DNA from: Lophium mytilinum
Taxonomy: Eukaryota; Ascomycota; Dothideomycetes; Mytilinidiales; Mytilinidiaceae
Assembly: GCA_010093605.1 (NCBI GenBank)
Contig: MU004184.1
Span: 391,897-455,896, forward strand
Direction of reading: 5' to 3'
Length of the DNA: 64,000 nt
A model generated the notes under the pieces. The model had not been told where the DNA came from. It ran no database searches and was given only the letters and a program-made list of their open reading frames with translations. Shown here piece after piece: positions 2,189-60,920 of the stretch. Numbering within the stretch: position 1 is the stretch's first letter; the number at the start of each line of letters is the position of its first letter. The translations under genes were made by a program, and so were the position numbers.

Positions 2189-2497
2189 TTAATTTATGCA
2201 ACGGAGACCACTTAAGGCACATACCTCGTGTCGCTTCTGTAAAGCCTCGTGATACTCACGATTCACATGCCGCAAGTAGCCTCCTCGTCTCATTCTCAGT
2301 TCGAGGTCTTCCTTCTTTACCCAAACAAAACGGAGAGACAGGAAGATCTCGACCGTTTCTGAGCCAACTGCAATGGGAGCTTCCACAATGCATCCGTTTA
2401 GGAACCTTCCGTTCATGAGTTTGACGCGCACATTGGCCGCTTCCACAGTCGAGAAACAAACGATGGCGATCCCATCACTCGAAGCAAAAATGAGCAT
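2189..2497 (-). pseudogene. RRM/UHM-type RNA-binding fragment
   Basis: A minus-strand frame of 102 codons carries a pattern typical of the second half of an RNA recognition motif: VCFSTVEAANVRVKLMNGRF followed by NGCIVEAPIA. The order (RNP1-like strand, helix, MNGR-F-G turn, VEA strand) most resembles U2AF-homology motifs of the Tat-SF1/Cus2 and SPF45 type. The first half of the domain is only traceable in another frame upstream, so the gene is broken or badly spliced. A downstream acidic frame (1884-2222, same strand) may be its tail. Function in splicing is inference from the fold; assignment within RRM families is uncertain. Confidence 0.45.
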
Positions 2498-2564
2498 GTT
2501 TCCACGAAACTAGACTGCATTGACGAGAACCTATCCGATGAGACCCTTGACATTCGTGCTGGCC

Positions 2565-2835
2565 ACTGAAACCTAAAGCAAAAAGGAAAGGAAGGATGAT
2601 CCGTCATGCTGGGCCCGTGACACTCCATATGCACAGGCTGATCGACAGAGATATTTCCGTCAACTCGCAATCATGGATCAGTATCACAAAGATCAGAAGC
2701 AGGCTATGCTTGCTCGAGTTGCTGAAAAGAACCCAGACGCCGCCACGACCTAGAACGCTAAACAGAGCCTGAAGGGGTGTGGGCGGACGGGGCTGGTTCT
2801 GGCTGGCCAAGGTCTCCCTAACACCATGTGCCACG
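2565..2835 (+). repeat. Dispersed repeat R1, copy 1
   Basis: This segment and 21568-21850 align over about 270 bases in the same orientation. Both begin ctaaa.caaaaggaaa, contain gatcc.t.atgctg.gccc, and later gacgccgccacgac. The plus frame reads MLARVAEKNPDAATT here and MLARITEKNLDAATT in the other copy, so a coding sequence was probably duplicated. Each copy lies near the inner edge of one of the two RIP blocks. Identity unknown. Confidence 0.55.
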
Positions 2836-2898
2836 AGAACAGCCCGGTCGAACCAGAGGTTGCCGGCCTGGAGTTGAGCTTAAGTTAGGTTTCTATAT

Positions 2899-3982
2899 TC
2901 AGCTATGGTTGTGATTTGGCGGAGTGACGGAGGGGAGGAACCGGGGGCCCGCGGCAGGGACGGGGTACTCTTGGTTGAGGGCCAACTTGTTCAGTATCGC
3001 GATCCCAAGCATTCGTTGTTGCATCTCAGAGCAGGAGATGACACATTTGCCGTCCAAATAGTTATTTAGAACACCATTGCGACTGACCAACGTGGTCCAG
3101 TGAGGCTTCTTCGGACTGTCCATGATGCCAGTATCGGTCGAGATGCGGTCGAGGCCGGCGCCGACACCAACGGCATGCTCGCTGTAGCGTCTGTAGGCAG
3201 AGAGGTCCTCCATCTGATCTTCCATTTCCTCAATGACAGAGTCGAACTCAGTCAAGCATAGGCCTCGAGTGGGGCCAGCGGTCTTGCGGCGATTGTAGGA
3301 CGGCGGCGAGCCTGTGGCTGAAGCGCGATACCGTGCACGCGCGTTTTCTCTGCAGCTTGTCGCAAGCGCGCGATCGAGGACGCCTCGGCAGTCTTGTCTG
3401 GTTTTCCACAATATGAAGCTGGCAGCTTGAGGCCACCCTTTGAGTCGTTCGAATTGCTGCTGACGTCGTCGTCGTCTTCCAAGAGCTGGGGAAGGCCACT
3501 GGTATCGAGAGTGGCCTCACCGAAAAGGATACTCTAGAAATCACGCCTAGGTCAACGCTCATGATGTCTCCAAGCGAGACAACTGGGTTCTTCGCCCATG
3601 TAGCTTCGATGCTCAGGTCCTCAGCCATATCAGCCATGGCAGTGTATACGGTCTTAGCTTCGCGTATGCCATCCGGAGTCGCGTCCTCGTCCGTCTCGGA
3701 TGTCATCTCGACAAGGAAGCCGGCGAAGCATTCTGTGGGGAAATAGTGGAAGGCAGGTGTAGAGAACGTAGTCTTGACCTCGACATTCTATCCACAGCCA
3801 CCGTTCTGCATGGTGGCGAAGTTGGTCTCGGGCAGGAAGAAGCCCTGGGATGGGGGTAGAAACGTGACAAAAGTGCTTTGGTGAGCTCGATCGCAGGTGA
3901 AAGCCGAGGGTCGGGCGGAGTCGATGTTCACAGACGTATCAACTCCCAAGATGTCCCACTCACTCCAGGGTTGCTGCCCCAC
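2899..3982 (-). pseudogene. Broken gene of unknown function
   Basis: One protein-like reading runs along the minus strand across about 360 codons but changes frame. From 3982 it reads MGQQPWSEWDILGVD and continues in the same frame past a TAG at 3788-3790 (CAG before a C-to-T change would fit) through MTSETDEDATPDGIREAK to about 3540. The signal then moves to the frame with EDDDDVSSNSNDSKGG (about 3480-3255) and then to the frame with DSVIEEMEDQMEDLSAYRRY, ending at 2899. So about two frameshifts plus one stop. No domain recognised; hydrophilic, no membrane segment. Host gene relic; an unrecognised intron instead of one frameshift is possible. Confidence 0.45.
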
Positions 3983-6900: not shown

Positions 6901-8081
6901 CAGTGCAACATAGAAAGAGAAGATTGAGGTTGGTATGATTGAATTCAGCACCTTCCGTGGTCGCCGTGACTGTCAACCGGATCTCGATTGTCACCTTGCG
7001 AGAGTTCTTGGACGTGTCCTGAAAGAGCCTGTTGACAAAATGTCTCTTGTGGCTCAGCCTGTCGAACTTCCTCTTTAGACGACGAGCGTCTTGACCGCAA
7101 TCCGTGCCGTATGTCCTCCACTTTACCTAGTCACTCCCTTGCGGATCTCCCTGGACTTCCTCACCCCGTCGAAACTGATCTCCGCGCGCTTCCTTGGACC
7201 CTAGCTCTCAAAGCTCGCATTTGACTCTCGCATCTGGCTCGCCTGTACGCACTTTACTCCACCACGTCGTACTCCGCAAGAGACAGCACGGCCCAATTGG
7301 CGTGCTCAGTTTAGTCGTCGTCTCGTGTACCGTTGTCCAAGTGTGATGATACTGAGCATCTCGCAGGTCTTGTCGGACTGCGGTGGCCGCGTACAGATTA
7401 TTCTCTTTGGGGTCGGGCTTGCGATTGAGCAACGCGTTCAGACGTGCCTCATGCTGTGGGACACTGCGACACCCGATCGTCTTCCGTCAGCTCGCCTTCT
7501 TCCTTGTCTGCCTCCGATATTCCCACAATGTGGCCGTGAGTCGTATAGCTCTTGTGAGGGGTGAACAGCTGGAAGCTGGCGGTGTCGGATGCAGGAATTG
7601 GATGCGCGCGTTGCTGAGCTGGCATGAAGGGGTTTTATAAGAACCATGCGGAGGAGCGATGGTGAAGCCATTAATGCCGAGCGGAGGAGGAAATAGGGAT
7701 GGCGGCTGTCCATGGCTGTAGGACTGCTTTCAGGGGTCTCCGAACGGTGGACGAGGCGGACTCCGAGGCGGATTTGGCAAGCGGATTGGAGATCTTGGTT
7801 TTTCCTTCTTTTGAAGCTACACAACATGTCAGCAAGGCCAAATTCGGCGAGCGCCTGGGTTGCTGGCCATGTTGGCAAGACTAAGAGGCCAAGAAAAAGT
7901 AAGATAAGTCCTAGTCATACCTTGAGATTCGTCGTCGAAAGTGTTCAGAAAGCGACTGGATATGACTGATACTCCACTCGCCTTGTCAATACTCGAGCCA
8001 TTCGAGATCAGTGATGGAACTGCACTGGAGCAATTTGGACTGGGGCCGGATGGAGGCACCCTCGAAAGTGCGAAGCCTCAT
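3983..8081. other. Gene-poor stretch, scattered coding debris
   Basis: No frame longer than about 145 codons and none with a convincing domain. On the minus strand near 4030-4115 a short piece reads KVMATGASDQPCIVWDI, reminiscent of a WD40 blade, but it is isolated. Base composition drifts AT-rich around 5650-6200 and 6450-6770, possibly old transposon debris. At 7440-7880 minus-strand frames contain an acidic piece (ADKEEGELTEDD) too broken to call. Nothing else is supportable. Confidence 0.4.
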
Positions 8082-8518: not shown

Positions 8519-9549
8519 TAGATCCTTGAGATGGTATTAAGGCCGGGAGCCCTGAAGAAGGTAGGTGCAGCTACTACACCCAGAGGTATCGCTTCTGGAG
8601 CTTGGTAAGTCTTAGTAAAGTCTGCTTACTAAGAGTGATTATACCTGATATCCAGATCACGTGACATCTTGAGCTCCCTGGCGACTTCGGTGTTGGGCCA
8701 CAAGTCCTTACCTTGTACTGTGATCCCGAGGCACGACTCGTGGAGGGTAGGAGAGCTTAACTCTCATTGAAGACGTTTGTGCAGTTCCACAGGTGCTACC
8801 GGTACCTAGTTTTGACAATGCAGAAAGCATCTACAGATATACCCGCCCTCTTTGAGCTTGGTTTCGCCCTCTCTACATCTCTATCCCATCCTAAACACAA
8901 CAGTCCTAGATGCTCATGCAAGCACACATACTACAGTCGGTCCATCGTCATTAACTCACCAACGTTTACTATTACTTTCATCTGCATCTAGCGGATATTG
9001 ACTCTGGAATTTGGGTATGAAACTAGGGAATTAGATGAGATTAAAAGAGCAGATTCACTCTTGTGTACAGTATTAAGATGATTATAAAATAGAAAGGTGC
9101 AGTTGGTTTAGGATGCGGCGATACCTCATCACTCCTCGTCCATCTTACAGGACCCGGACGGTCTCGGATGTCCTCCTTTCTCTCAGGAGACAGGATACCA
9201 GTTTCGATACTCGCGGTAGCGTGGAATTCCCGTCTCAGCGGTCTCTATGTAGAGAACTTGACGAGTTTAGCAATGGTCTTCCTAGTGACAGTCCGCCTGA
9301 CAGTGTTCAAAAGGTTAACCAATGCAGCCGCAGCAGCAGCAGAGCGTTTTCGTCTGGGCGTTTCCCTCCATCTTGATGCTGTCCACTAGTCTTGAAGGTC
9401 AGCGCCGGCTTCTGTGGCGCTAGGTTAAGTGCTAAAATGCACCTGCAGCATCTAACAAGATCCGAAAGTCGCGCTCTCCGGGAACGTTCCAACCGCCCCA
9501 AACTCGAGGTCGTCCTTCATGATGAAGGCGAAGTACGCGATCTTTTGAA
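8519..9549. other. No gene supported
   Basis: Short frames only. A minus-strand piece at about 9430-9550 (IIQKIAYFAFIMKDDLEFGA) looks protein-like and may be the frameshifted continuation of the gene at 9550-9985. A short CAG-rich run (9325-9345) is present. Otherwise nothing recognisable. Confidence 0.3.
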
Positions 9550-9985
9550 TTATACGAAAGGCTGCGACCCAGAAGGAAGCTTGAAGGTGATGTTTGTTCG
9601 CAATGCCGTACTTCGCCGGTTCGGAAGAGCCCCCTGGTGCTCTCCTTGATATCCTTCTTCTTTAAGGGAGCTTTTTATGCCCAGCCTCAGGGTCTCTAGA
9701 TTAGTCGAGAATACTAGCCGGTGGGGAGCAGTCATCGCCTTCTTAGCCTTCTCGAAGCTGCTGATGCTCTCGGTAGTCTTGATCGCGGCCATTCCGTTCA
9801 TGGGCACGTATGTCCGAACGACCTCACTGAATTGCTGGAGCTCGATTTCTGGTGAAACCTACTTCTCTGGTTTGCAATGCTGGCCTGCCAACGTCATGCT
9901 CATAAGGACTGAGTGAACTGCTACGGTGTTTTTGTAATCCTCCTGTCCGCTGCTAGCGATGACAAGGGCGTACATGATCTGCCTC
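9550..9985 (-). pseudogene. Unknown gene relic, one internal TAG
   Basis: A single minus-strand frame runs about 140 codons, beginning after a plausible 3' splice site (ctgac branch-like sequence, then caag) near 9985. It reads QIMYALVIASSGQEDYKNTV, then meets TAG at 9859-9861, then continues in frame with ELQQFSEVVRTYVPMNGMAA and RLVFSTNLETLRLGIKSSLK to a stop at 9550. TAG in place of CAG would be a RIP-type change. Not recognised. It may be spliced to the RGG-like frame just upstream (10072-10254), which would make one gene. Confidence 0.45.
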
Positions 9986-10071
9986 TTGGATTTGACAGAT
10001 GGTCAGTCCGGAGTCCGGGCTAGCCGCTCGCTTGCACTTGAGAGTGCCGTGAAAGGTCGGCGTACTGATCT

Positions 10072-10254
10072 CTACATCACTTCCGGGATGTTGTCTTTGG
10101 CAGCCTGCTTTGCAGTATCCTTCGTGATCTTCTTGACACCTCCGACGGGCGGAGCAGTAGCGGTGGCTTTGCCTCCACGACGGGCTCCACGGTTGGGGCG
10201 CGTGTCTCGGCGGGTCTTGAGGATGGCGGACGACCGGCTGCTATAGAATAGCAA
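10072..10254 (-). pseudogene. RGG-like N-terminus, Yra1-like
   Basis: The frame reads AILKTRRDTRPNRGARRGGK and then APPVGGVKKITKDTAKQ. The same pattern recurs at 53477-53640 (ILKSRRDCRPSRGGRCGGRD, SPVGNMKKTNKATAKQ). Fungal Yra1/ALYREF proteins, which hand mRNA to the export receptor, start with a short acidic-aliphatic motif, an Arg/Gly-rich stretch and a similar PVGG-KK segment before the RRM. No RRM follows here, so the call is tentative. An Arg-rich region of another nuclear protein is an alternative. Confidence 0.35.
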
Positions 10255-10560
10255 GCTGTTGGGCTAGAACTCTTGAGGTCGTGATCTACGTGGAGCGGGC
10301 ATTTCTAGGCGCGGCTGGTCATGTCTGATCCCGGGAACAACATTGGATTCATGGCAGCGGATGGATCGAGTGATTGCTAGTCAAGGAACCGCCACGACCG
10401 GTCTGCGCGAACACATCAGCGAGATACGTTCACAGGCGCCTTGCTCGGTGGTGATGAGTAACGAGAAGCTGGTTGTGAAATCGTCTTCGGCCCAGTGGTA
10501 TGGTGAGGAGCTGGTGCTCTACCTAATCAAGCCCGAGCCTGACGCGGAGACGTATGCCCT

Positions 10561-10854
10561 TCAGCTCCCAGTCGTCGAACCTCTAGACCAGAGAGTAACC
10601 CAGGCGGGGATCGGCATCGACTCGGACGCTGGCTTCGTTTGAGATTGCGGCAAGGTTGCTGAAACTCTTTTGATGCGCCGTTCTGATTTGTACTGGATCC
10701 GGCCCTTTGCGCGCAGACTGTCCGAGACTTGATCGTTGCCGTAGTCTTGCTCATTCGCCCACACCATGCAGGGTATCCGGAGGAGTTGATCTTCAGAGAA
10801 ACTCCACTGCCTCTCGACATCGGTGGTAACTGGGTGAGGAGGTTTCGGTCGCTC
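10561..10854 (-). CDS. Hypothetical protein fragment, possibly Myb-like
   Basis: An open minus-strand frame of 98 codons without an initiating Met at its upstream end, so probably an internal or last exon. It includes DVERQWSFSEDQLLRIPCMV, then GRIQYKSERRIKRVSATL. The W..sEDqLL start and the basic R-x-QYKSERRIKR end resemble a SANT/Myb helix arrangement, but the middle is not diagnostic. Ends at a TGA at 10561. Neighbours on the same strand are relics, and no partner exon was found. Confidence 0.35.
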   Translation of the reverse strand, partial: ERPKPPHPVTTDVERQWSFSEDQLLRIPCMVWANEQDYGNDQVSDSLRAKGRIQYKSERRIKRVSATLPQSQTKPASESMPIPAWVTLWSRGSTTGS

Positions 10855-10859
10855 TCACA

Positions 10860-11276
10860 TGCTAGTGCGTTGGCTTGGGTGAGGTACTGATGAAGGCTTC
10901 GCGAGTTTAAGTATGAAGTGCTAGGAAGCAGAGGGAGGGTTACGACTTGTAGCGATGGCTGTCGAGGTTGGGGCTGTGACTGGGTTCTGGACATGAGTAG
11001 AGGAGAGGAGGTTCGTGATCCAAATGAAAGTAACTTCGTTGTGGGACTCGGGCTCTACCTTAATCTTCTTCGCATAGACCGTTATGCCATTAGACAACAT
11101 AATCCTGCGGAGACTCGGACTGTTCGCAGCGTTGAGGCGTGGACCCACTGGGGACGGCAACTCTGGTTTGGCTCGGTAGACGGGGAGAAGAAGGACAAGC
11201 GGTCGATATTTTAGCGGGAGCTTGGATGTAACGCACGTGCGTAGGTTGCGGGCTATATTGATGATACTATCAAGAG
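10860..11276. other. No gene supported
   Basis: Only short overlapping frames on both strands. No domain, repeat or RNA gene recognised. Confidence 0.3.
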
Positions 11277-11534
11277 TCAGCCCAATTCCTTGAAATTGAT
11301 GGCTAGGTACCTGCCTTCATAGAGATTATCGAGATTGCGGTCATCAGTAAGAGAATGTATCATGGTACCCACACCTAGAGCACTCGATCTCCCCGTTAGT
11401 GAAAAAGAATATTCCAATCCACGGCGCCGAAATTTTAGAAGTCGTGAAATGGTGTTGTAGACCTGACCTCGCCGCTTAATGATCTCGCGAAGGCCTAGGT
11501 ACCACAATCGATGTACTCCTGGCAAAGAAACCAA
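11277..11534 (-). CDS. Hypothetical small protein
   Basis: An open frame of 85 codons on the minus strand, basic in its first half (LREIIKRRGQVYNTISRLLK) and ending in YLAINFKELG. Protein-like composition but no recognised family, no clear promoter and no splice partner. It could be chance. Confidence 0.25.
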   Translation of the reverse strand: MVSLPGVHRLWYLGLREIIKRRGQVYNTISRLLKFRRRGLEYSFSLTGRSSALGVGTMIHSLTDDRNLDNLYEGRYLAINFKELG

Positions 11535-11798
11535 TTACCCTCTTATAGTAGTTTTCCCGTAGCTCCCCACCACTCCTAGAAAGGTGGAAGCCAAGAAAGC
11601 ACACCCGAAAGTCTCACTTCATCTCCAGATGGCTGAGGTTCATTGAAGGAAGCCACTGGTACCATACGCACCATAGTCTCCCCTCTAAGACCTCAGCCAG
11701 CACAAGCACGTCCTTCAAGTGTGAGGAACCTCGAAAATCTCCCACTCATCCTCTTCAATCTCTCGCTCGTCCGTGGCCAGGACTGAATGGACAGAGTC

Positions 11799-12209
11799 CT
11801 AAGCCTGACTGCCTATACGAGGGTGGAAGGCGTTTGTGGTACCGGAGTTCTCCTGCCCTTCCAGACGCATATAGGGGTGTGGATTGCTAGTGCGGCGAGC
11901 TGTGCCCTCCTGCTTCGGATTATGCGCAAACGGGATGTGTGCACGTGCCATGAACACCTCGAGCTCCTTCGGGAGGATTTGCTCTGCTATTCCGCGACGG
12001 TGCCAGTAATTGATAAGGTCTTGCAGCTCCTGAAGCCTGCCTAGGGCTTTCAATTCCTAAGCTGAGAGTAGGAGTCCTCCCATCTCTTTTATTTCTCGGC
12101 CCCATCGCGCGTGGCGTTTCCGAGAGTTGTTCCGGCCTAGTTCTGACTCTGCTTTTGTATACCAATCTGGCATATACAGCATCCCTGTGGTGTTTACTTT
12201 GTGCGCCAT
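11799..12209 (-). pseudogene. 136-codon unknown gene with one TAG
   Basis: From an ATG at 12209 a single minus-strand frame reads MAHKVNTTGMLYMPDWYTKA, continues through RKRHARWGREIKEMGGLLLS, meets TAG at 12057-12059, and goes on in frame with ELKALGRLQELQDLINYWHR and LPKELEVFMARAHIPFAHNP to TAG at 11799. The length is an exact multiple of three with only one interruption. CAG to TAG would explain it. Helical, basic, soluble; not recognised. It could be intact if an intron removed the stop, but no good splice pair was seen around it. Confidence 0.45.
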
Positions 12210-13740
12210 TTGCGTGTTCGCCGCTGTGTGCTAATGTGTCCAACTCGATCGAGCCGACTCGCAATGTCTCGTGAAGGTTGACCATCCGTTCGGATCTCTG
12301 AAGAATCTTGGCCGACCCAAGCTTTTGGTGGCACTCTATCCTTGTGGGCGGACCCACCCTGGTGCGAACGGCCTATAGATCTCTCGAGCTCTGCAAGCCG
12401 TCGCGGTTTGGAGGGAGAGTGGACGGGGTTCTCGTGCTCTTCCACGGGGCGCGGATGCGAGCATGGCGATAGTGATTATGCCGAAGAACTTTGGCGCATA
12501 GCAAGACGCAAAACGGGGCCTCTTAGATCCGGACCTTGCAGAGACTAGGGATTGAAGGTTAGCGCCTCTGTCTGCAAACTAAAACGGCAATCACCGCGCA
12601 CGGGTAAAGTATACGTACTTCTCTTAGCCATACAGCTCTGCGGTTGTTGTGGGAAATGGGAGTGATGGTGATCGATATGGGAAGGGGGTGCTGGAGAAGC
12701 TGCGAGGACCCCTCCCGCTTCCATACTCTGCCAAGACACAGCACGTGATACCAGCGCGTGGCCCAAATGCTCACACTTAGGCTTCTGCAGGGAAGACTAT
12801 GACTCAGTATTACTGCATGAGTCTAGCATAGTATTAAGTTAACGAGGTGCCCAACCCTAGAAAGAGGTACATAATATCACTATCTTATAGATGTCCCTCA
12901 CCTATAACTATCACAATGCTGAGGTTGCTAGTCACCCGATTGACTCATTCACTTCCTATGCATTTAGCCTTCACTTCGTGCACGTTCTTCACAGTCGAGG
13001 CTAGACAGTCAAGCTAAGACATCGTCCCGAACCAGTGCATAGAAAAGTGGACCGCCAGTAAGGAAGCGAGTAAGATCATGGTCATTACCGTACTATCGAA
13101 ACCATATTTACGCAAGCTAAGCCATCCGAGAATATACTCCATCAAATCAACCTAGAACCCGTTCCACAACACTACCACGCCGCCCTACAAGTAAACTACT
13201 TCGAGTCGAGACATCCAAACGGTTCGCAAGACTTTAAGAAGAAGCAACACATCTGCGAACAGGACCTCGCCGGCTGTGAGATATTAGCTTAAGCAAAAGA
13301 TGAACAGCGGTAAGGTCACTCACCCTGTCGCATGAAATCCTTCAGGTGATGCTATTTGACATCGTAGGAGAGGTTGCCGATGTAGACGCGGCGATCCTGT
13401 TATAATGACTCCCGTAGATACTGCATTATTTACTCCTTGGCCTGCACGCGCGCCTCTGAACCGGGGGTCAGGGCTCCTCAAGACGCGCTATAGGACCTGG
13501 TGAACGAGGCGGCACCGCCCTGTGCGGCTGCGCCGGGGGATCAAAAGCTTCGGTCCGTACAACAAGTCTTAAATCCATCCTAGAATCCAATCGCAAAGCC
13601 AAGGGTACCCAAGACATGAGAAAGTAAGCTTGGAGAGTGTCGGCGTCGAAGAAGGCTAGGTTATTCCCGTCTCTCTAAACATGCAGGTTGCGTTCAAAGA
13701 GCATTAGGCGCGACTAAATAATAGCTTACCGGTGCCCCAA
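12210..13740. other. No gene supported
   Basis: Frames are short and shift often. A minus-strand charged stretch at 12210-12445 may be the frameshifted upstream part of the 11799-12209 gene. 12780-13740 holds no readable protein frame on either strand. Confidence 0.3.
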
Positions 13741-14776: not shown

Positions 14777-14799
14777 AAAGCGTCAGATCTTGCTTTGGA

Positions 14800-15195
14800 A
14801 GACGGTGTGGAGAACTATGAGGAGGGAAATGCTGTCATTGCTAAGCGCATGTGGGGCGAAGTCGATGAGCTCGTGGTGGCTGTCAGCTCTTCTTTCAGCA
14901 GACGGTCGAGGTCCGGGCCGTCCTCGAGCGCAGCGTGTCACTTGCCGGACGCAGTTAAGAGCCGAAGTGAGGTCTTAATTGTGGTCTTGTAGGACGTCCG
15001 TGTTGAAGGAGAGGTGTAAGTTGAGGCTCGCAGCTCTTACGGCAAGTCGCGCTCGTGAGGTCGAGCGGTCTCGTCGTCGAGCTTACCTGCAGTCCTGATA
15101 CCACAGTGACTCGATCGCTATCTATATTAGTACCCTATAACTCAGAGACTATGCGGTTAGGATACTTACGTAACACGCTCGCCGAAGTTTCTTGA
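14800..15195. other. No gene supported
   Basis: No frame with protein-like composition beyond about 40 codons. No repeat or RNA gene seen. Confidence 0.3.
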
Positions 15196-15620
15196 CTAGT
15201 GCGGCCGAGGGGAGATCGCACGGATTAACCACATTTCGATCTTCATGGGACAATTGTCGATCTTGACACCATTCAGGCTCTTGTCCGCTTCATTAGCGGC
15301 AGTTCCGATCGCAAAGACGATGATTGAAATGAGTTTCCTTGGGCTCATCGCCCTCGTTGGCGTCGTTTTGTTGTGGGGGATCGCTCGGTGCATCCGCATC
15401 GTTCCCGTCGTTTTCCGGTGGAGGTTCGCTGGGCTCGTCGCTATGGTCGTTGTCGTAGCTCTCTGGAGTCTCGGTGCGTGCAGCATCATCGCCACGGCTG
15501 GACACTGACTTAGACAGAAGGTCGATTTTCTGCTGGTGTGAGAGTACAAGGGGTTGTAGTTGGGCAGCTGTTGTAGAGAGGGCGGAGTCTGGGCGATGAG
15601 GGCTATTTTGGGCCGCTGCG
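15196..15620 (-). pseudogene. Acidic repeat protein with RRM-like end
   Basis: A minus-strand frame open from about 15620 to 15293 reads LSTTAAQLQPLVLSHQQKID, then a repeated acidic segment: HSDEPSEPPPENDGNDADAP and SDPPQQNDANEGDEPKE. The signal then shifts frame and reads ANEADKSLNGVKIDNCPMKI before the stop at 15196. That last pattern (LNG-x-x-x-D-PMKIE) is the C-terminal strand of an RRM as in Yra1/ALYREF proteins. Whether both parts belong to one gene is unsure; an intron could replace the frameshift. A copy of the acidic module lies at 33003-33130. Confidence 0.4.
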
Positions 15621-16764: not shown

Positions 16765-16828
16765 CTATTCAATCTTCCTGCAGTATATGACCACTAGACG
16801 GGAGAGTCTCTTAACCGGACGTCGGTTT

Positions 16829-17265
16829 CAACCCGTACACAGCGTGTTTTCGGACTTCCGCAATGGCGTCAATCTCCTTGTACAGCTTCTCTTTGTTTTC
16901 CGGGTTCATCTTCGCCGTGGCTAGTGATCCGCCATCCCATCCATGATGTGAAGCGCGTTCCATATCTTCTTTTTAAGTGCAGCCCTATCTACACTCTCGC
17001 TTTTGCCGAATTCGAAGTCCTTCGCGCATGACAAGGGGTGGCCCTCGAACATTGCAGTTGTGAAGCGTGTTCGCCATTCAGCGATCCTGATATGCCTACT
17101 CGCCGTTGCCGCAGGGCATCACCACTAGCATCGACGTATCCCTCCGGAACATCTGTCTCTACTCGTACACAGCGTTCTTTCGGACCTCGGCAATGGCGTT
17201 GACCTCCTTGTACAGCTTCTCCTTATTCTCCGGGTTCATCACCGCCGTAACTAGTAATCGTTAGT
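16829..17265 (-). repeat. Duplicated coding module, 330 bp apart
   Basis: Two minus-strand copies of one module, starting from gtacacagcg at 16835 and 17165. They read MNPENKEKLYKEIDAIAEVR and MNPENKEKLYKEVNAIAEVR, then KHAVYG and KNAVYE. Each is preceded by an A/V-TA dipeptide context. Upstream of the second copy a tactaacga branch site and ttactag acceptor are visible. So an exon with flanks was duplicated in tandem. Both copies are now without a full gene around them. Confidence 0.55.
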
Positions 17266-35180: not shown

Positions 35181-35188
35181 AAAAAAAA
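35181..35188 (-). terminator. Pol III T-run terminator of U6
   Basis: Eight consecutive T on the minus strand immediately after the U6 3' end. Confidence 0.85.
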
Positions 35189-35291
35189 TATTGAAGCTAA
35201 CTCTTTGATAAAGCGTGTCATCCTTAGTGCAGGGGCCATGCTAATCTTCTCTGTGTTGTTTCAAATTGACCAAATGCCCGAAGGCGGAGGG
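35189..35291 (-). ncRNA. U6 spliceosomal snRNA
   Basis: The minus strand matches U6 throughout: 5' stem-loop GCCTTCGGGC, then ATTTGGTCAATTTGAAACAA, the invariant ACAGAGAAGATTAGC box that pairs with the 5' splice site, ATGGCCCCTGC (U4-pairing and stem I region), AAGGATGACACGC (internal stem-loop), and a U-rich 3' end. All catalytic-core segments look intact. Together with the TATA box upstream, the T-run and the extragenic box B this looks like a working gene. The exact 5' nucleotide is not determined; I place it at about 35291. Confidence 0.95.
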
Positions 35292-46530: not shown

Positions 46531-47566
46531 ACATGTCCGAAACGAGACGTAAACGTTCACCGAACGTAATACGGCCTCTGAATTTGATGATCGGATACCT
46601 CAAGCAAAGTTGGAACCGGCTTCAGACGAGCGCAATGGTGCTGTTGTGCTGCGTGTATCCATAATGCCCTTGGCCGCCTCAGAACCATTCAACGAGTCTG
46701 AATCGTGAATGTAAAGGCCCAGACATCGTAATCTAGACTCATGTTTTTTCGTTATGTAGATTGGACCTGCTCTACTGCCCGGGCATTATGAGAGCTTGGG
46801 TGCGTTGACTTTGAGGACAACGATAGGTCTTCCAGACGCCCCCGCTACTCCATCTTGTTTCAGAATACTATAGCATAAGCCTGGGCACACAGATTTATAA
46901 CGGATGGGCTCTAATACTGCTCACTCGACGCCACTGTAGGGAGAAGCCTGGCTACTCAGTATCTAGACGGTTAAGAGGTGGCCTAATATGCACCGCCAGG
47001 TAGGCTTTGATTCACGGCGGCGGCGACTATGTGGTCTCTGGCTTGCAATCCCTGGAAGCTTTCTCTCCTTGTAGAGAAAAGCATAGACTTCTCAGAACGG
47101 CGATGGCGCAGGGGGAAGTGGTGAGGATGCTGGTCGCCGTCGCGTCTCGTCGCGTTTTCGGCTTGACGCGTCCCACCAGCCCGCACGATCGTCCAAACAA
47201 GGGCCGTGTCTTGCGAAGACCATATGGAGCTTCTATATCATTCTCTTTCCGTTCTCGCTGCTATCAATTCGGGGGTGTGGGGCAAACAACACTGGTGCTT
47301 ACACAAAGTTGATCACTGTCCGCGCCACCTCAACACCATCACGAAAACAGTCAAGAAGTGAATCGGGGAAGTAAAATAGCAACACGGATACTGCATAACG
47401 GTTTCTACAGACACTCCCGTTGGGAAAAGCAAACGGCGCCTCTTCGACTAAGTGACAACATGATCCAGGCCGACACACACAAGCTCCCAACATGGCGTTA
47501 AAGTCATCACGATGCAAAGGCAAGACATCACAGCACCAGAAATGCGGAGAACAAGAAGCTGATTGA
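46531..47566. other. No gene supported
   Basis: Short frames only. A plus frame at 47007-47312 is Arg/Ser-rich and unconvincing. 47300-47560 resembles 56280-56400 in places and may be the upstream part of the repeated family F1. Confidence 0.3.
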
Positions 47567-48080
47567 TTGATTGATCGTTTCTTCTTCAAGGTCCCGCACA
47601 AGGCGAGAGGCTCAATGAAAAAATGGGTGACTAGGTCACAAGAGAGTTCATTGAAGGTGATCTGCCCATCCGAAGACAAGCCATCGACCTCCGCTGAAGC
47701 TGAAGACTCCGAAGAGACTTTGAAGATAGGCCGCCCCAAGAGAGAGAAGAAGATCCGGTCCAGTAGGAGGAAGAAAAGATGGAAGAAGTTTGTCGAAGTC
47801 GCCATCACCGTCGCCGTCGCCTTTACCTTGCCGTGCGGAAACAGAAAACACTGGGAGGAGTGACGTACCTGCGCTAAAGAGTCGAGAGAGTCGAATGGAT
47901 GGGCGGTCTGGCATGCCCTCCATACCCAGAGCCACGAGAGAAGACCATGATTCGAGAGGGTGTAAAAGTATCTTGTCGACGAAGAGTGTCCTGAAATTGA
48001 AGAGGAGTGATGTAGGAGTGAAAAGGTCGAGGGGCGGGCGGGTTGATATACTGGAGAATATTTGGAAGTCTTGGCGCTGA
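47567..48080 (+). CDS. Repeated family F1, copy 1
   Basis: Two overlapping plus frames. 47567-47863 reads DRFFFKVPHKARGSMKKW, then SSRRKKRWKKFVEVAITVAV. From about 47860 to 48080 the frame of 47790 reads RSDVPALKSRESRMDGRSGM and KSVLKLKRSDVGVKRSRGGR. Related sequence lies at 56421-56560 and 63919-63969. A short intron or a frameshift must join the parts. Basic Ser/Arg-rich character; no domain recognised. Shortly after the stop lies gactcatcagcgctag (48079-48094), shared with copy 2. Confidence 0.45.
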
Positions 48081-48408
48081 CTCATCAGCGCTAGACCGTT
48101 TAATCAGACCCGTTTTAACGAGGACTGGGGGTGGCCGCTCCAGGCAACAGGAGCAGCCTGCTTCACCTGCCATGGAAGCTTCCAGATCACAGGAGGGGTT
48201 CCGCTCCAGCTGGCCGCGCCGCGATACGCGAGGGCCGCCGCCGCCAAGCCTGTGATCCCGACTGGCACTCCCACGACAGCCAGCCTGATGCCCGCCTACT
48301 GTAATACTGAGTGTCTGACATGTGATAGAAGGCCTCAGTGACTAGCTTTATAGCATGTGTTAATAGAGAGTCTCGTCTCGCGTCGGTCTGGGGATATCTT
48401 CAATTTTA

Positions 48409-52104: not shown

Positions 52105-52939
52105 TTACTGTACCAGGACAACCACACACCTTGAATCATTGTGTTCCAAGTCACCTTCACGCGCCGGCCACGCGCTGGCTCTGTAAGATTTCTTTCGCAT
52201 TTCTTCGCTCATCTTGCCCTCCACATTTGTGTCCCTCCCGCTTCCTCTGACAAGCTTCGGCCGAACGTGGATGAATTCAATTCTGGGGAATGGTGTCAGT
52301 GTGGCCGCAGTTGTGGGATGAGGTGGACCGATACGTACAACCTTGAAGTCCCAAGGGCAACTTCCTCCTTATTGTCCTTGTCTACCATCTCAACCTCCAT
52401 CGTTTCGATGCGTTGAGTCAGCTTGTCGAGATGTGCCTCCATATTCTCCACGGTCGGTTCTTTGTCCCCATCTCAGCCTGGACCTTGCCACTCTTGTTCT
52501 CTTTTTTGAACTGATCTGAAAGCTCATCCGCGATCTCCATGCGCTCCTTCAATTCTCTGTTTTTAATGTCCGTCTCATCTTCGTTGACAACCTTCTCGTT
52601 GACTTTTTCTTTTCTTAACTTCTTCGTGACCCTCTCGCGCTGTTCCTCCACGAGAGCGACCTGGTGCTCCTTGAACCTCTTGTCTAGCTCATCCACAACC
52701 TGCATGCGCTTTTTTAACTCCTTGTTATTTATCTCCTTCTCGCCTTCGTTGACAAGCTTCTCGAGGTTTTTCTCAAATCTGATCGCGGTTTCCTGGCGCT
52801 GTTCCTCACGAGAGCGGCTTGGTGCTCTTTGCCCAAGTCCCATCAGGTTCTGGAGCAATTCTCTTGACTTGGGGCCGGCGTCCTGGGGTCCAGAAGAAGG
52901 ACGCCCGCCAGCCATGATCCTTCCGTTAATTCCTGGCAT
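52105..52939 (-). pseudogene. Charged coiled-coil gene with one frameshift
   Basis: From ATG 52939 the frame reads MPGINGRIMAGGRPSSGPQD, then continuous coiled coil (FEKNLEKLVNEGEKEINNKE; RMQVVDELDKRFKEHQVALV; a diverged second copy RMEIADELSDQFKKENKS). Near 52470 a GGGG run appears one base short: coding moves to the frame reading EPTVENMEAHLDKLTQRIET and EVEMVDKDNKEEVALG. A donor (gttgta or gtacgt, ~52345) and ccccag acceptor then join in phase to IEFIHVRPKLVRGSGRDTNV and MSEEMRKKSYRASAWPAREG, ending TAA at 52105. The internal repeat RMxx(V/A)DELxxxFK suggests a duplicated helical unit. The frameshift could be an assembly error. Confidence 0.6.
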
Positions 52940-53326
52940 TTAAACAGTGGCTGATTCCTAGCTAGGGCTTTCGGGCATGGAAGCGCTTGTAGGGGAGGCG
53001 ACGAGTCGTTTGGAACCATGTATCTGCTTGATACGCGATTGCTAGGAACGAAGGCCCTTGGTTTATTATTAGCAATGCGGTCACCATGATCAGGCATTGA
53101 TATCGTACCTTCGTCTTCCATCTTCTCGAACTGCCCATGCAAGACGTTTCATCTTTACTCTTGGTACATGAGGCACCCTCTAGCCTATGGGCGGTGTAGG
53201 TTATGACAAACAGGGAGAAAAACCCTGACATGGCTTCGCGGAAAACTGTGCCTGGAACCGCGTCCAGACATGATCAAGCGTAGGGAGGCGATGCGAGTTA
53301 CTAGAAGCGGACGCAGGTGGAATATT

Positions 53327-53746
53327 CTAGGTCGGTTTGATCTTGGAAACGAGGAAGGTTGACGCATCCTGCAGTTCATCAACGTCGCTCAGCTGTGAGC
53401 TGCTAGCAGCGTCCATTTCCTCGAGGATCTCGTGTGTAGTGACCAATTTGCTGATGCTGATCTTGTTTTCGCTTGCTCAAATTGTGCCAGGCGGGACGTT
53501 ATGCCTTCCGGTCTGCTTCGCAGTAGCCTTGTTCGTCTTCTTCATGTTCCCGACAGGCGAAGCGGCGGTGATGTCCCTGCCTCCACAGCGACCACCACGG
53601 CTCGGTCGGCAATCACGGCGACTCTTGAGGATACCATGGAATGACTCCTTGCGTTTGCCGGTCGTTGTGGATGTAGGCGACGTGTTGTCTCCGCGGTCTG
53701 CACCCCCATGTGGGCCAATCCTCTTTCTGGAAGCTATGCTCCACAA
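53327..53746 (-). pseudogene. Yra1-like RGG fragment with acidic tail
   Basis: The frame 53746-53477 includes ILKSRRDCRPSRGGRCGGRD and SPVGNMKKTNKATAKQ, matching the 10.1-kb fragment. A second frame downstream reads NKISISKLVTTHEILEEMDA and SSQLSDVDELQDASTFLVSK to a TAG at 53327. The order (Arg/Gly-rich, PVG-x-x-KK, then SKI-x-VS-L) is that of Yra1/ALYREF just before its RRM, but the RRM itself is not present. One frameshift or intron separates the parts. The long plus-strand frame over the same place is its antisense. Confidence 0.4.
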
Positions 53747-56279: not shown

Positions 56280-56761
56280 TGGGTGCAAAGCATTGATGCT
56301 GCGCATCAACAACTCCGGGCAGCAACACCAAGGCGGGGCGGCGACGCGTCCCTTCATCAAGTGAAACACCAAAGCGAACATCACGATCCAGCAATAGAAG
56401 TGAAGTACCAAAGATAGAGAAGCTTCTTCTTTGAAGACCCAGACAAGCTGAGCAGATCAATGAAAAAGGTTGAGGAAAGATCCTCGAGTTGGGGGTTCCA
56501 AAAATTCCCTGCCGATCCGAAGACCAGCAGGAGCGGTCAGGTTGGGTAGTTTTCAACCAGCAAAAGACACGGGCTCGGACGACTCCTCACTGCCACGCGT
56601 AATGCCCTGTGATGATTGTTAGTGAGAAGCCAGGAGAGGAAAGGATGGGGGAGGGGAGACTTGCCTTGCACTAGGATGAAGAACATAACTTGGTCCGGCG
56701 GCCGAGAAGGTTTTATAGCTGCCAGCCAGGCGCTAATCGAGTGATGACTCATCAGCGCTAG
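56280..56761 (+). pseudogene. Repeated family F1, copy 2
   Basis: The plus frame from 56421 reads SFFFEDPDKLSRSMKKVEER, then SSSWGFQKFPADPKTSRS and a TAG at about 56547. Further on, AKDTGSDDSSLPRV aligns with TENTGRSDVPALKS of copy 1. The segment ends with gactcatcagcgctag (56746-56761), the same 16 bases as after copy 1. It lies directly after repeat array B. No intact gene can be drawn. Confidence 0.45.
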
Positions 56762-56788
56762 GCAGTTTAACAGCAGGCAGTCTAATCG

Positions 56789-56844: not shown

Positions 56845-56889
56845 GGGTACCTACACTACAGAGGGGTGGTGCCTGGGGCCGTGCGTTGG

Positions 56890-58370
56890 AGACCGCAGAC
56901 TTCCGCCACATTCCACGACATTCTACACCAAGCACGAGCTCCCCACCAGGTTTCCATAGGCCGGCTGCGCGGAGAGTGCCGGCATCGGTGGAAGTATCAC
57001 GTGAGCATCCAGCCTTTGTACCAATGCATAGGCCCTCAACCAGTACGTAAAGTAGGTGCACACATTTCTATGTTTTGTACTCCTCGACTCCATGAGCTAC
57101 TGCAGCGGCTGTCTCACCTCTCTATCCATGCTTTCTTACGAAGTGAAGTGTTCTGCCTTGAGAGATTAGTTATCTAGTAAGAAAAGATGAGATATTGCTT
57201 TCAAGTCTGCTTCTGCGACCATCCTGCGCGTATCAAAGAGTGAAAAGGTGTCCGATTAGTAAAAGAGCCTCTAGATACACAGTGAAATGATGTGGTGAAC
57301 TCTCTCTGCAAAGGGCTGGCGCTCCAGCAAGCAAAAACCGGTCAAGCCTGGGCACGGAAGAGCAAGCAGGAACCATGAGAGTCTAGAGGAGGCGACAGAA
57401 GATACAAAACGCCCTCATCTTCAAGTCCACCACATATTCTAAGAGCAGCAGCGAACAATCCATCCACGGAGTAGTCTCGCTGATCTCTTGGAGACGGACC
57501 AAGGCGCATTTTTTCAATCGTGTTCTAGCAATAGCGGCTGAGTAAGGGATGAGACTTTCTCGACTATGTCTATCGCTGACATGTGTTTCGGGAAAAGATT
57601 GTGGACTGTGTAGCGTGCTGATGAGCTAGGCAAGGCTTCGAAATACGAAAGGCAATGTTTGAGGCGGTCGGGAAAGCAAGAGATTGAGCTGTATCGCGAT
57701 GCTCGACTTTATGACCTAACTGTCTTATTTCTGACAGCACTGCGATGGTGAGCTGGACTCGTGAGGCAACTTAGAACGGTAGGATATCCAACGGGTTGAG
57801 AGATAATTGAAGGAATCAAAGCCATGATTATAGGCGTGCACACTACTAGGGAGGCCTACCTAAAGTCCGGGGGCCGTATACTAGGTCGTCAGACGCAGTT
57901 CCCGCCCGGCGTAATCCCTGCGGTCCGCGCCGAGAACTTAGCATTCTAGATCATGTTCAGCTGTTGATATATATACCGCATATCGTAATCCGGGTGCCAG
58001 GTTAGGAGCCCCCCAGCATTTGGTGTTCACGGTTTCTCGTGCATCTCGAGAGGTTCGAGAAGATACATTCAGTATCCTGGCAAACAATCGGGCAATGGAA
58101 GTCGAGAACGCGGATGACACAATCGAAGAATGATGCTATCTGAGGTCCCCAACACTCACAGTAAATATGTTTAAGATGTCGACAGCTGAACTAAAATGGT
58201 CCAAACCTAATTCATTGTAGCTCCTACCCTCTACAAAATGTAGATTGGGTATTCACGCCTAGCGCAATGGCAGATGCTCCTTGAAACCGCAAGCGCTCCC
58301 AACCTTGCACCATCGTCCTTTCCATGATCCGGTCTTCTTCCCATGAACTACTGATTCGGGCAGAGAAAGG
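56890..58370. other. No gene supported
   Basis: No frame above about 130 codons and none protein-like. AP-1-like or RNA gene signals were not convincing. The D-arm-like stretch near 58260 was rejected as a tRNA. Confidence 0.35.
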
Positions 58371-59180
58371 TCGCAACACTTCAGAAGAATCGGCCCAAAT
58401 TGTCTGTCATCTTCCTCCCATTGCATCTCCGACAGCGTAACCTAAGACACCGACTCCTCCTGAAGTCATCTCTCCGGGCTTTGGGCACAGGATTGTCGTC
58501 CCTAAGAGCTGCGATTCTTCTTCAGTCTTGTCTGTGTGTAGTTGAAGTAATCAGTCGTTGAGCGTCACATCCTATTTGACCCCAAATCCACCAGGCCGAG
58601 TCTCTCCCGCGCCGTAGTAGCCCAGATGTGGTAGCCTGACGAATATTTTCAAGTCTCGCCTTCGAGCTTGAGTGTCTCCAACAGTTCGGAGCTGAGAGGG
58701 TCGTGTACCAAATCTTCGTCGATCTCGTCAACCAGGAATACAATGTCTTCCAGGGTGGCTCACTTGCGGACATCGTCGAATGGGAAAGCGGGCAAGACAA
58801 ACAGGTTGTGTCAGACCACCGAAGGATGTCTTGCAGCGTGGCACTGCTGCGGAGGTCGTCGAAAGAGAAGCGAGGAAGACACGCCGTTTGTGGCAGGCCA
58901 TGTCAGCACTGCCAGACTCGCGCAGAAGAGGGAGAAGTCGGCCCATGATAGTATTTGCTTTGTCGTCTCCCTCCCATTTCATCTCCGGCGGGGTTGGCCA
59001 AGGTTTGAGTTCTTCCTCGAACTACCACTTAGGGCATCATATCGTCTTCTCAGAGAGAAACACACCACGGTTCGCGAGAAGAAGGGCGCAGAGTCGGCCC
59101 TCGATTGTCTTTACCTTGTCATCTCTCTCTAGCTTCTTTCCCGGCAGCATGGACGAGGGCGCTACATCCTCCTCGCGCAA
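58371..59180 (-). repeat. Coding-like degenerate repeats, ~156 bp
   Basis: The phrase cggccc..gat.gt.tttgc/cttgtc.tctc.ctcc recurs at about 58396, 58939 and 59095. On the minus strand it reads EMKWEGDDKANTIMGRLLPL and RDDKVKTIEGRLCALL in two copies, with a weaker EMQWEEDDR copy at the left. An acidic-aromatic repeat protein was probably encoded here. Frames are now broken. Confidence 0.45.
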
Positions 59181-60068
59181 ATGCTAGGTCGTCGTTCTCG
59201 ACGAAGTCTTTCTTGAAATTTGAGGCAGCTCATCATCGAGCGACCAGGCGAGCAAGACACCAAGGTTGTGCCAGGTCACAGTGGAACTCTCCGGCTCGCG
59301 CGGGAGAGCTTTGGAGGCTACGGATTGAGCTCAGCCGCCTCATTTGCCCTCCACACGTCCCGTTAGGCATCATTTGCCCTCAACTGGCGCTCATGCTATG
59401 TCCCCTGGCGTTCGGGGCCTTCGTTATTGAAACCGATTGTCGCGTATACCGGAGCCGAGCGGAGGATTGAGATTGAAGGGGGCCGAGAGGAAGGATTCGG
59501 CCTACAGAAGCGCTGTGATGATGTCAATCGTTAGCGGAGATAACGTGAATAATATTGAAAGGGTTTCGCTTACCGAAAGCTAAAACTAAGCATTACAATG
59601 GCCAGAAAGTGTTCTCGGTGCCGGAGTAGTCGGGACCATGCTTGCCATCCAACGGTGCTGTCCCCAGTGATCTTGACTACGAAAACGACAAATCTCGTGA
59701 CGTCTGCCGCGAACCACGTTCATTCACGGAGAAAGATCGTCATCAACTTGAACGATCAACTTGAATACGCGGCGTCACTTTCTCAATGAAGACGCAAAGA
59801 TCGAGAATGTTGGCAGCACCAATTTGCGCACGGTATAGGGAGAGCGAGTAATAGAAGCTATGAGAGCGACAATTCGTGAGGATTAGACAAGCCCTACTAA
59901 CTGTCTCGTCCGTCTCCCCGATCATCCTCCCTGAATTTTTGCTGTCGCTCGCAGTCTGTCGTTTCCGTGGGCCTCCTCGGTCTTTCCTTTCCGCATTGAT
60001 GAAAGCCTCAACGAAGCAGTTCACGTCTCCATCGGAATGCAGGAGACACTGCATAGGCCTTCTCCGTG
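59181..60068. other. No gene supported
   Basis: A minus frame (60072-59743) continues downstream of the Mei2-like relic with charged residues (VEAFINAERKDRGGPRKRQT) and may be its decayed 3' part. The rest is unreadable. Confidence 0.35.
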
Positions 60069-60920
60069 TCAATCAATCGGAATCAAACTTGGTCTTGAAA
60101 AATGTAAAAGAGCTACATTAATTAGCGCAATGTGATCAGAAGAGATGCATTTGTGGCTCACCTTCGGCGGGCAGCTCTTCAGCTTCCTCATAGGTGAGGA
60201 GTTGCGCAGCATCCTTGCAAGTGAGGACTTGCGCAGCTTCCTTGTAGGTGAAGATTTCCGAACCTTCTGGATCAGTGGCTCGAGGCCCCGTGAGGTAGCG
60301 TAAGATATCTCTGCCAATCTGGTAGTCGGACCGGCTCTCATGCTCGGCTAGAGACGACCTTCAAAGCATTCCAGGAATCGAATGATGTGGATTGGTGAGG
60401 TCAGGTTGAAGAAGGCATAGCCGACGTCGCAGTCTGATTTGCAGTCCATGCGCAAATACATGAAGTCAATCAGTCCTCGACAGCCGGTATCCCATAGCAA
60501 ACGGAGAAGTTGTTCCTGAGGAGTGTTAGTTGATGCTACACAAGCAAGGAAGAAGGTGCTTACATCAGTCATCTTGTTTGGGATATTGCGTAACATGATG
60601 GTAGTTGGCACCCGATTTGGAATCCATCCGAAGATACATGAAGTCAAGCAGTCCTCATCCCACAGCAACCGAAGAAGTTGTTCCTGAGATTGTTAGTCGA
60701 TGCTACACAAGCAAAGAAGAAGGCGCTTACATCAGTCACTTTGTTTGGAATATCCCGCAGCATGATGGTCTTTCGCACATCGGACCCATCCAGGATGTGA
60801 GCATAGGAGACGGTGTTATCATGAGCATTCCAGGTGCGTCCGTTTCGGTAGAACGCAATGAATCGGACGAACGAATCCTTTGCATACGACTTAGTTGTCC
60901 GGCCGGGTCGTGCGCGTAGT
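60069..60920 (-). pseudogene. Mei2-like RRM gene with duplicated exon
   Basis: The minus strand reads DSFVRFIAFYRNGRTWNAHD, then KTIMLRDIPNKVTD, intron 60684-60730 (47 nt), EQLLRLLWDEDC, a scrambled stretch, then PTTIMLRNIPNKMTD, a nearly identical intron 60516-60563 (48 nt), EQLLRLLWDTGCRGLIDFMY, CDVGYAFFNLTSPIHIIRFL, TAG at 60348. This is the Mei2-type C-terminal RRM (Pfam RRM_2), first half plus intron present twice. The first copy lacks about 11 bases and is out of frame after. Downstream, in a shifted frame, come AEHESRSDYQIGRDILRYLT and repeats TYKEAAQVL / TCKDAAQLL / TYEEAEEL, then intron 60113-60161 and a stop at 60069. At least three lesions; a dead RNA-binding paralog. Confidence 0.8.

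What the first reader, a model, noticed from the sequence alone, without database searches (positions are those of the whole stretch)
2189..60920. A graveyard enriched in RNA-handling paralogs
Of the relics that can be named, nearly all handle RNA: UHM/RRM (2.2 kb), Yra1-like pieces (10.1, 15.2, 53.5 kb), a Sub2-type DECD helicase (38.2 kb), an Argonaute N-region (39.1 kb) and a Mei2-like RRM (60.1 kb). A U6 snRNA lies among them. Sub2 and Yra1 work together in TREX. Random duplication should not favour one pathway. Small numbers and my own recognition bias are the main alternative.
Basis: partly seen in the sequence, partly recalled or inferred. Interest (0 to 1): 0.7.

Follow-up and report, generated by a model that had tools for sequence, protein, structure and literature searches.

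The report
One-way mosaic of RNA-gene fragments
This stretch of a fungal genome is stitched together from short pieces of the fungus's own genes, many of them RNA-handling genes and the readable pieces facing the same way, with spare copies of splicing-RNA genes among them; why that is so is unknown and testable.

Summary
Outside its AT-rich blocks the window holds many copies, 45 to about 520 bp long, of genes scattered over the same 43 Mb genome. Sub2, Yra1 (three pieces), Argonaute, Mei2-like RRM and U6 are confirmed; "UHM/RRM" is not. The search adds an SR-type RRM gene, a QIP-like nuclease, an RRM/RanBP-finger gene and U4, but also TOP1, Mot1, a cyclin, a PHD protein, ProRS, a CDK and eleven unnamed donors. 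So RNA handling is over-represented (RRM loci near 3 of 32 donor places, 0.21 expected; the one control family, kinases, 1 of 32, 0.39 expected), not "nearly all". Donors recur in other graveyards (12 of 26). All 40 distinct pieces that lie in a donor gene of assigned strand (22 donors) have their sense on minus; another graveyard has 12 of 12 on plus. Introns are kept in 3 of 3 pieces spanning one, so these are not spliced retrocopies. Most likely a directional DNA-level capture; the mechanism is inferred. Separately, U1, U2, U4 and U6 genes are multiplied and carry introns in key pairing sequences; in U1, U2 and U6 some copies lack them.

The parts
1681..1847 (-). piece of CDK-type kinase gene (C24:215035-215196), 81%
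   Evidence: (Pkinase)
   Evidence: no Pfam
3084..3528 (-). piece of PSP1-domain gene C12:796213-796658, 89%; 1 bp from the next piece
3530..3913 (-). piece of unidentified gene C15:424699-425125, 71%
7311..7706 (-). neighbouring pieces (2 bp apart) of two unidentified genes (C6:1158094; C13:1389602)
9154..9756 (-). Mot1 gene copy (C1:1648778-1649228) split by a 160-bp insert; 6 bp of donor sequence occur on both sides
10013..10370 (-). PHD-finger gene copy split by a 187-bp insert, 168 bp of it Yra1 sequence (10085-10252)
10766..11012 (-). piece of cyclin-T-like gene C3:1290336-1290581
11441..12171 (.). pieces of C19:183215-183733 and C22:280549-280763 that abut with no base between
13238..13558 (-). 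piece of SR-type RRM gene C9:823651-823974, 84%
15150..15291 (-). piece of Yra1 gene C8:1098983-1099124, 76%
16816..17265 (-). two ProRS pieces with overlapping donor coordinates flanking a QIP-like nuclease piece (16938-17101, 91%)
17590..17782 (-). pieces of RRM/RanBP-finger gene C7:1848131-1848251
35186..35285 (-). U6 snRNA gene without intron; TATA-like box upstream, T run and B-box-like GGTTCGAGCC downstream; one of 21 copies
38256..38611 (-). Sub2 piece with its intron retained; abuts 38612-38987 (C10:1646367) with no base between
39235..39382 (-). Argonaute piece, 93%; 8 synonymous and 2 other differences
39523..39614 (-). 2EXR-family gene piece C5:1098716-1098807
47505..48103 (-). snRNA-type gene: CTAGCGCTGATGAGTCA promoter element (48078-48101) and TTCATTGA 3' box; RNA not identified
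52265..53137 (-). DNA topoisomerase I gene pieces with a QIP-like piece (52833-53019) set inside
53369..53669 (-). Yra1 piece, exon-intron-exon, 71%
56482..56616 (-). U4 snRNA (Rfam extent); the 5' exon lies upstream behind a 58-nt GC-AG insert; promoter element at 56745-56768
58514..59073 (-). two pieces, overlapping on the donor, of unidentified gene C6:367188-367669 (more at 13708-14027)
60086..60851 (-). Mei2-like RRM_2 gene: three pieces, two overlapping on the donor, intron retained
63924..64000 (-). 3' end with 3' box of a U2-type gene that runs out of the window

Best explanation
The window is part of an accessory compartment in which core genes are copied as short, sense-oriented, intron-retaining DNA pieces and then decay. 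Shown: the mosaic, the recurring donors, the single orientation in this window, retained introns where they can be seen, near-blunt joints, and an excess of RRM genes. Inferred mechanism: during break repair or replication the growing strand repeatedly switches template onto the same strand of transcribed genes (for example the strand displaced in an R-loop). That would give pieces of a few hundred bases, introns kept, all facing one way, with jumps back on the same donor and frequent reuse of R-loop-prone donors, among which RNA-handling genes could be common. Pieces this short or diverged would escape RIP, which has instead marked the AT-rich blocks beside them. The U6 and U4 genes, with promoter elements, look like gene copies added to the same compartment rather than relics of the same process.
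For: (alignments of at least 50 bp, E<=1e-6): 40 of 40 distinct window pieces inside a donor gene of assigned strand (22 donors, 15 of them with the strand fixed by Pfam or an RRM hit) have sense on minus. L072 has 12 of 12 on plus (5 donors), L032 6 of 6 distinct on minus, L038 4 of 4 and L027 3 of 3 on plus. Introns are kept in the three pieces seen to span one: Mei2-like, Sub2, Yra1. The 11 joints of pieces lying within 12 bp of each other have gaps of 0-8 bp or overlaps of 2-10 bp. The same donor is copied again with overlapping coordinates: Mei2-like, TOP1, C6:367 kb. 12 of 26 window donors have a further piece in other graveyards. C to T changes show no marked CpA bias in the pieces (0.119; other contexts 0.098-0.117), while the blocks at 1-2 and 22-33 kb have a composite RIP index of about 1 to 1.9.
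Against: No R-loop, transcription or repair data exist here, and genic against intergenic origin of the pieces was not tested. Nothing excludes capture by a mobile element. The U6, U4 and U2 copies carry promoter elements upstream of the RNA and so did not come from transcribed sequence alone. At least four window donors (L014, L021, L028, L040) have no clear gene under the match and were not in the orientation count. L074 holds both orientations (6 plus, 2 minus) and L016 too (1 plus, 2 minus, the latter outside the donor gene). Low-pN pieces still show pS near 0.2 (2dlnL 9.8, two extra parameters), so the sources may have been diverged functional genes and not the resident ones.
Confidence: 0.33

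Rival explanations
1. A mobile element of Helitron type or similar captured several gene fragments per copy, in the direction of its own transcription, and decayed.
For: Multi-gene mosaics with introns kept, nested pieces and one orientation; co-oriented capture in maize Helitrons is recalled, not seen in a call (the paper tried is not held).
Against: No 14-mer recurs at four or more places in the sense-oriented graveyard sequence held, so no shared ends were seen (decay could hide them). One orientation holds from 1.7 to 60.9 kb. Pleurotus Helitrons are reported not to tend to capture host gene fragments (PMC4289320, passages). No RepHel search was made.
Confidence: 0.25
2. An accessory chromosome once carried functional, diverged copies of these genes (from a relative or an old duplication), later broken up and shuffled; the RNA theme reflects what it carried.
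For: Differences shared by two or more copies are mostly synonymous (81 to 34) while unique ones are not (190 to 302), p 8e-10. The ten pieces with the lowest fitted age have pS of 0.09-0.28 at pN of 0.01-0.06. The QIP-like pieces in the window, L072 and L074 are almost non-overlapping parts of one gene.
Against: Shared synonymous differences are also expected from evolution of the resident gene. Shuffling at 100-500 bp would not keep one orientation. PSP1 pieces overlap heavily, and the QIP-like pieces in L017 and L054 overlap those of the window.
Confidence: 0.2
3. Reverse transcriptase switched between nuclear RNAs (unspliced pre-mRNAs) and the chimeric cDNAs were inserted.
For: Sense orientation, jumps on one template, nuclear RNA theme.
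Against: Introns are kept in 3 of 3 pieces spanning one. A single run of tens of kb is implausible and independent insertions would not share orientation.
Confidence: 0.1
4. The RNA enrichment is recognition and sampling bias: conserved, easily named nuclear genes, drawn repeatedly.
For: 11 of 26 donors are unnamed; small numbers; donors are not independent.
Against: The RRM test uses genome coordinates, not recognition, and the larger kinase family shows no clear excess.
Confidence: 0.2

Closest known systems
B chromosomes as mosaics of A-chromosome fragments (rye; PMC11549084, passages)
   Same: Many pseudogene-like fragments from all standard chromosomes; an Argonaute gene among the contents of the rye B.
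   Different: Here the compartment includes the first part of contig C4, pieces are about 45-520 bp, one orientation over most blocks, and donors are reused with an RRM-gene excess; whether it is supernumerary is unknown.
Gene fragments on fungal accessory chromosomes (Cladosporium fulvum; PMC10823647, passages)
   Same: Core-to-accessory copying in a RIP-active fungus; the paper cites copies under 400 nt or under 80% identity as usually escaping RIP.
   Different: There an 8.6 kb fragment whose genes decayed, possibly by RIP; here tiny pieces without a marked RIP signature.
Helitron-captured gene fragments
   Same: Co-oriented multi-gene mosaics with introns (recalled from maize).
   Different: No shared ends found; very long one-way block.
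Introns in U6 and other snRNA genes
   Same: mRNA-type introns in conserved snRNA sequence; a 2017 paper calls U3 and U6 the only small structured RNAs known to be often interrupted by an intron (PMC5832005, passages); a Rhodotorula hasegawae U2 intron appears as a title in a reference list (PMC2586383).
   Different: Here U1, U2, U4 and U6, and for U1, U2 and U6 copies with and without the intron in one genome.

Membership tests
Processed (reverse-transcribed, spliced) pseudogenes | introns removed | tested here: not met
   Introns kept in 3 of 3 pieces seen to span one
RIP-mutated duplicates | CpA-biased C to T change | tested here: not met
   CpA 0.119, CpG 0.117, CpC 0.101, CpT 0.098 over 47 alignments
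Helitron-captured fragments | several co-oriented gene pieces with introns | tested here: met
Helitron-captured fragments | conserved element ends / RepHel | tested here: inconclusive
   No 14-mer at four or more places; RepHel not searched
Accessory or B-type mosaic of core-gene fragments | fragments from many core chromosomes | tested here: met
   45 pieces from 32 places on 20 contigs
Accessory or B-type mosaic of core-gene fragments | dispensable, variable between strains | not testable with these tools
Uni-strand small-RNA cluster | target-derived pieces in one orientation | tested here: met
   40 of 40 distinct pieces
Uni-strand small-RNA cluster | small RNAs made from the locus | not testable with these tools
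   no RNA data
U6 snRNA | Rfam model above gathering score | tested here: met
   82.9 bits, cut-off 44
U4 snRNA | Rfam model above gathering score; 5' end pairs with U6 | tested here: met
   80.4 bits, cut-off 46; first 30 nt after joining the exons pair with window U6 at -25.3, the stretch starting 14 nt before exon 2 at -19.2 kcal/mol

The most novel reading that the evidence does not exclude
The one-way blocks are an RNA-based interference locus: read from the other strand, a single long transcript would be antisense to Argonaute, a QIP-like partner, Sub2, Yra1, SR and other RNA genes at once, so a selfish compartment could dampen the host's silencing and RNA-processing machinery while carrying its own spare U2, U4 and U6 genes.
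Probability: 0.07. Interest if true: 0.93.

Novelty: new variant of a known kind. Interest (0 to 1): 0.7.

Why it matters
Mosaics of core-gene fragments are known from B and accessory chromosomes, but a mosaic whose assignable pieces face one way over 59 kb and which draws on a small, RRM-rich donor set points to a directional copying process or to selection on orientation, and either can be tested. The snRNA gene copies with and without introns at U1, U2 and U6 recognition sites, in one genome, make the old idea that such introns arise by reverse splicing inside the spliceosome (recalled) open to a direct comparison.

Tried and rejected
Random patch insertion at breaks as the whole story was my first reading; it does not predict one orientation, so it was demoted. 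Spliced retrocopies: rejected, introns kept. RIP decay of the pieces: rejected. Shared element ends: 0 14-mers at four or more places, 11 at three or more, against 0 and 10 in an orientation-mixed control. RRM_1 in the window: no place in the genome list. Rfam identity for the 47.5 kb gene: none at E<=1; its copy L039: none at E<=0.5. Identity of donors L010, L012, L030 by phmmer against the PDB: no convincing hit. L020's pieces in L016 and at 46874-46953 may be a dispersed repeat, so 12 of 26 may be 11.

Rows dropped: one search used 64 of the 129 rows; left out were 5 AT-edge repeat rows, 36 rows and 24 (U6, U4, snRNA-element and dispersed-repeat families and short matches to them). Of the 64, 19 lay in regions I judged graveyards (C4 below 470 kb, C23, C1 below 515 kb), leaving 45 pieces in 32 places; two of the 32 (C3:2050670, C16:810629) are snRNA promoter regions. 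The ranges called graveyards are my judgement. One search leaves out alignments under 50 bp and donors without an assigned strand (L014, L021, L028, L040); of its 42 window rows one is the same piece listed twice and one lies outside its donor gene. Strands of 7 of the 22 donors rest on the longest open frame alone. The chance figure (8e-18) assumes 100 draws from 10,000 genes and is only illustrative; its table was typed. The orientation test was made after the pattern was seen; L072 and the other loci had been fetched before.
Full report
What the window is. It lies at C4:391897-455896 of a 43.18 Mb genome in 24 contigs; that it is a filamentous fungus is my inference from its genes and RIP indices. 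Two parts are AT-rich with strong RIP indices (1-2 kb and 22-33 kb). The rest has about 50% GC. Searching 2001-22000, 33000-48500 and 48400-64000 against the own genome gave 129 match rows (48, 46, 35), 69-100% identical, on nearly all contigs. After leaving out repeat edges, snRNA families and a dispersed repeat, 64 rows cover 10,526 bases; without places in other graveyards 45 pieces from 32 places on 20 contigs remain. So about a fifth of the GC-rich part is assigned to donors; the rest is unassigned at this sensitivity. A 3 kb core control matched only itself; a 10 kb control was not scored.

Who the donors are. By Pfam and phmmer: PSP1 domain, cyclin-T-like, Mot1; ProRS, Sub2, Argonaute, 2EXR, PHD; SR-type RRM; RRM_2/Mei2-like, TOP1, RRM plus RanBP finger, CDK; QIP-like nuclease, whose only PDB hit is QDE-2-interacting protein, E 5e-11; Yra1, with THOC4/ALY hits. 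The names Mot1, Sub2, Yra1 and CDK rest on these hits plus my reading. Of 15 nameable donors 7 are strictly RNA-handling (QIP-like, Argonaute, Sub2, RRM/RanBP, Yra1, SR, Mei2-like), 2 transcription, 1 DNA, 1 chromatin, 1 translation, 1 signalling, 1 other, 1 uncertain.

Is the RNA theme real? Donor places within 2 kb of an RRM_1 place: 3 of 32, 0.21 expected, p 0.002; with the C23 graveyard 4 of 37, 0.25 expected, p 0.0003. Within 1 kb: 2 of 32, 0.12 expected, p 0.006. Protein kinases within 2 kb: 1 of 32, 0.39 expected, p 0.33. With an assumed background of 10, 15 or 20% RNA genes the chance of 7 of 15 is 0.0003, 0.004 or 0.018. So the enrichment is probably real but rests on few, non-independent donors and one control family.

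The same donors recur. C23:100-110 kb and C4:222-232 kb draw on the PSP1, QIP-like, C14:883-885 kb and C19:180-183 kb loci; C23 also on C6:1158 kb, C4 also on the SR gene and Sub2, often by other parts of the gene. In 166 kb of sequence held (window plus 28 loci), 12 of 26 window donors have a piece other than the one for which a locus was fetched.

One orientation. One search lists 42 window rows (at least 50 bp, E<=1e-6), all with the donor's sense on minus. One piece is listed twice and one lies outside its donor gene; that leaves 40 distinct pieces from 22 donors, 15 of them with the strand fixed by a Pfam, RRM or phmmer hit, 7 by the longest open frame. Counting donors, p is about 5e-7 (about 6e-5 for the 15). 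U6, U4, the snRNA-type gene at 47.5-48.1 kb and the U2 end at 63.9 kb are on minus too. L072 has 12 of 12 on plus from 5 donors, L038 4 of 4 plus, L027 3 of 3 plus, L017 2 of 2 plus, L032 6 distinct of 6 minus, L054 1 minus; L074 has 6 plus in one block and 2 minus; L016 has 1 plus and 2 minus, the latter outside the donor gene; L033 none. Pieces set inside others (Yra1 in PHD, QIP-like in TOP1, QIP-like between ProRS pieces, SR between Mei2-like pieces in L038) keep the same sense. Two long open frames without donors at 43.2-44.2 kb (plus) and 40.7-41.4 kb (minus) do not share one strand; they look like separate genes.

Level of copying. Introns are kept in the Mei2-like, Sub2 and Yra1 pieces. 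The 11 joints found within 12 bp have gaps of 0-8 or overlaps of 2-10 bp, and several donors are re-read with overlap. In two split copies 3 and 6 bp of donor sequence occur on both sides.

Age. pN/pS is 0.39 over 42 window alignments and 0.35 over 24 elsewhere (frames from open reading frames, a few of which may run into introns), as for a decaying copy against a constrained gene. A model in which sources were already diverged by 0.2 at synonymous sites fits better (2dlnL 9.8, two extra parameters, 48 pieces, grid fit). Differences shared by copies are mostly synonymous, 81 to 34, unique ones 190 to 302 (one of nine donor sets gave no overlap). This is compatible with resident-gene evolution or with diverged sources.

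snRNA genes. U6: 21 copies; U4: 6; U2: 7 full copies and 3 weaker hits of 41-47 bits; U1: 5 hits under the gathering score, E 1.7e-13 to 2e-8. Most U6 copies share a TATA-like box, the RNA, a T run and a B-box-like element (name recalled) but little of their further flanks; 7 of 21 have a 48-51 nt intron after ACAGAGAAG. All 6 U4 copies have an insert that splits the 5' end: it starts with a regular GT site in 3, with GC in 2 (the window's among them), with GTTCG in 1. All 7 U2 copies have an insert near the 5' end (6 matched by pattern, one of these with GTTCGT as 5' site; one read by eye), and 3 of 7 a second one right after GTAGTATCT or a variant of it. 2 of 5 U1 copies have an intron within ATACTT/ACCTTG. 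Splicing is inferred from sequence. A promoter element shared by many of these genes has 46 genome matches with up to 3 mismatches, against 0 for the reversed pattern.

Verdict. A real, strange structure, probably made by a directional DNA-level process of which the exact kind is open. My ten keyword searches showed B-chromosome and accessory-chromosome fragment mosaics; none was aimed at orientation, so I make no claim that the one-way pattern is unreported.

Noticed in passing
L098, L100 (U1); L074, L083, L086 and four more (U2); window 56482-56800 and L078-L082 (U4); L050, L053, L054, L058, L059, L062, L065 (U6): Introns sit in recognition or pairing sequences of U1, U2, U4 and U6 genes; for U1 (2 of 5), the second U2 intron (3 of 7) and U6 (7 of 21) other copies in the same genome lack them.
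   Followed up: partly
46 places genome-wide, in the window 48078-48101 and 56745-56768: A conserved promoter element (AAACNGNCTAGCGCTGATGAGTCA) and a 3' box mark U1, U2 and U4 genes and unidentified RNA genes.
   Followed up: partly
L094 (C4:136 kb): A U1-like gene whose 5' end reads ATACTTGGC instead of ATACTTACC (likeness by eye, no Rfam hit).
   Followed up: no
window 47505-48103; 85% copy of most of it at C23:82744-83196 (L039): snRNA-type gene with promoter and 3' box but no Rfam match.
   Followed up: partly
L026 about 1741-2669: The resident Yra1 gene seems to have an intron of about 900 bases, as the yeast gene has an unusually long one (recalled).
   Followed up: no
L072:6447-6585: A dispersed ~136-bp repeat with 22 other places, set into a PSP1 piece with about 6 bp of donor sequence on both sides.
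   Followed up: partly
window 46866-46996 and 46100-46509: A second dispersed ~130-bp repeat (6 other places) and a 98-bp tandem array.
   Followed up: no
window 40662-41420 (-) and 43221-44153 (+): Long open frames with no DNA match and no Pfam hit; they may be intact lineage-specific genes.
   Followed up: partly
L017 (C13:1530686-1533845): A second QIP-like sequence (88% over 309 bp) beside a piece of the C14 donor gene; perhaps another small graveyard.
   Followed up: no
window 21925-23488: The edge of the AT-rich block matches C20:103.6-105.2 kb at 87% over 1.6 kb; an RIP-affected repeat.
   Followed up: no
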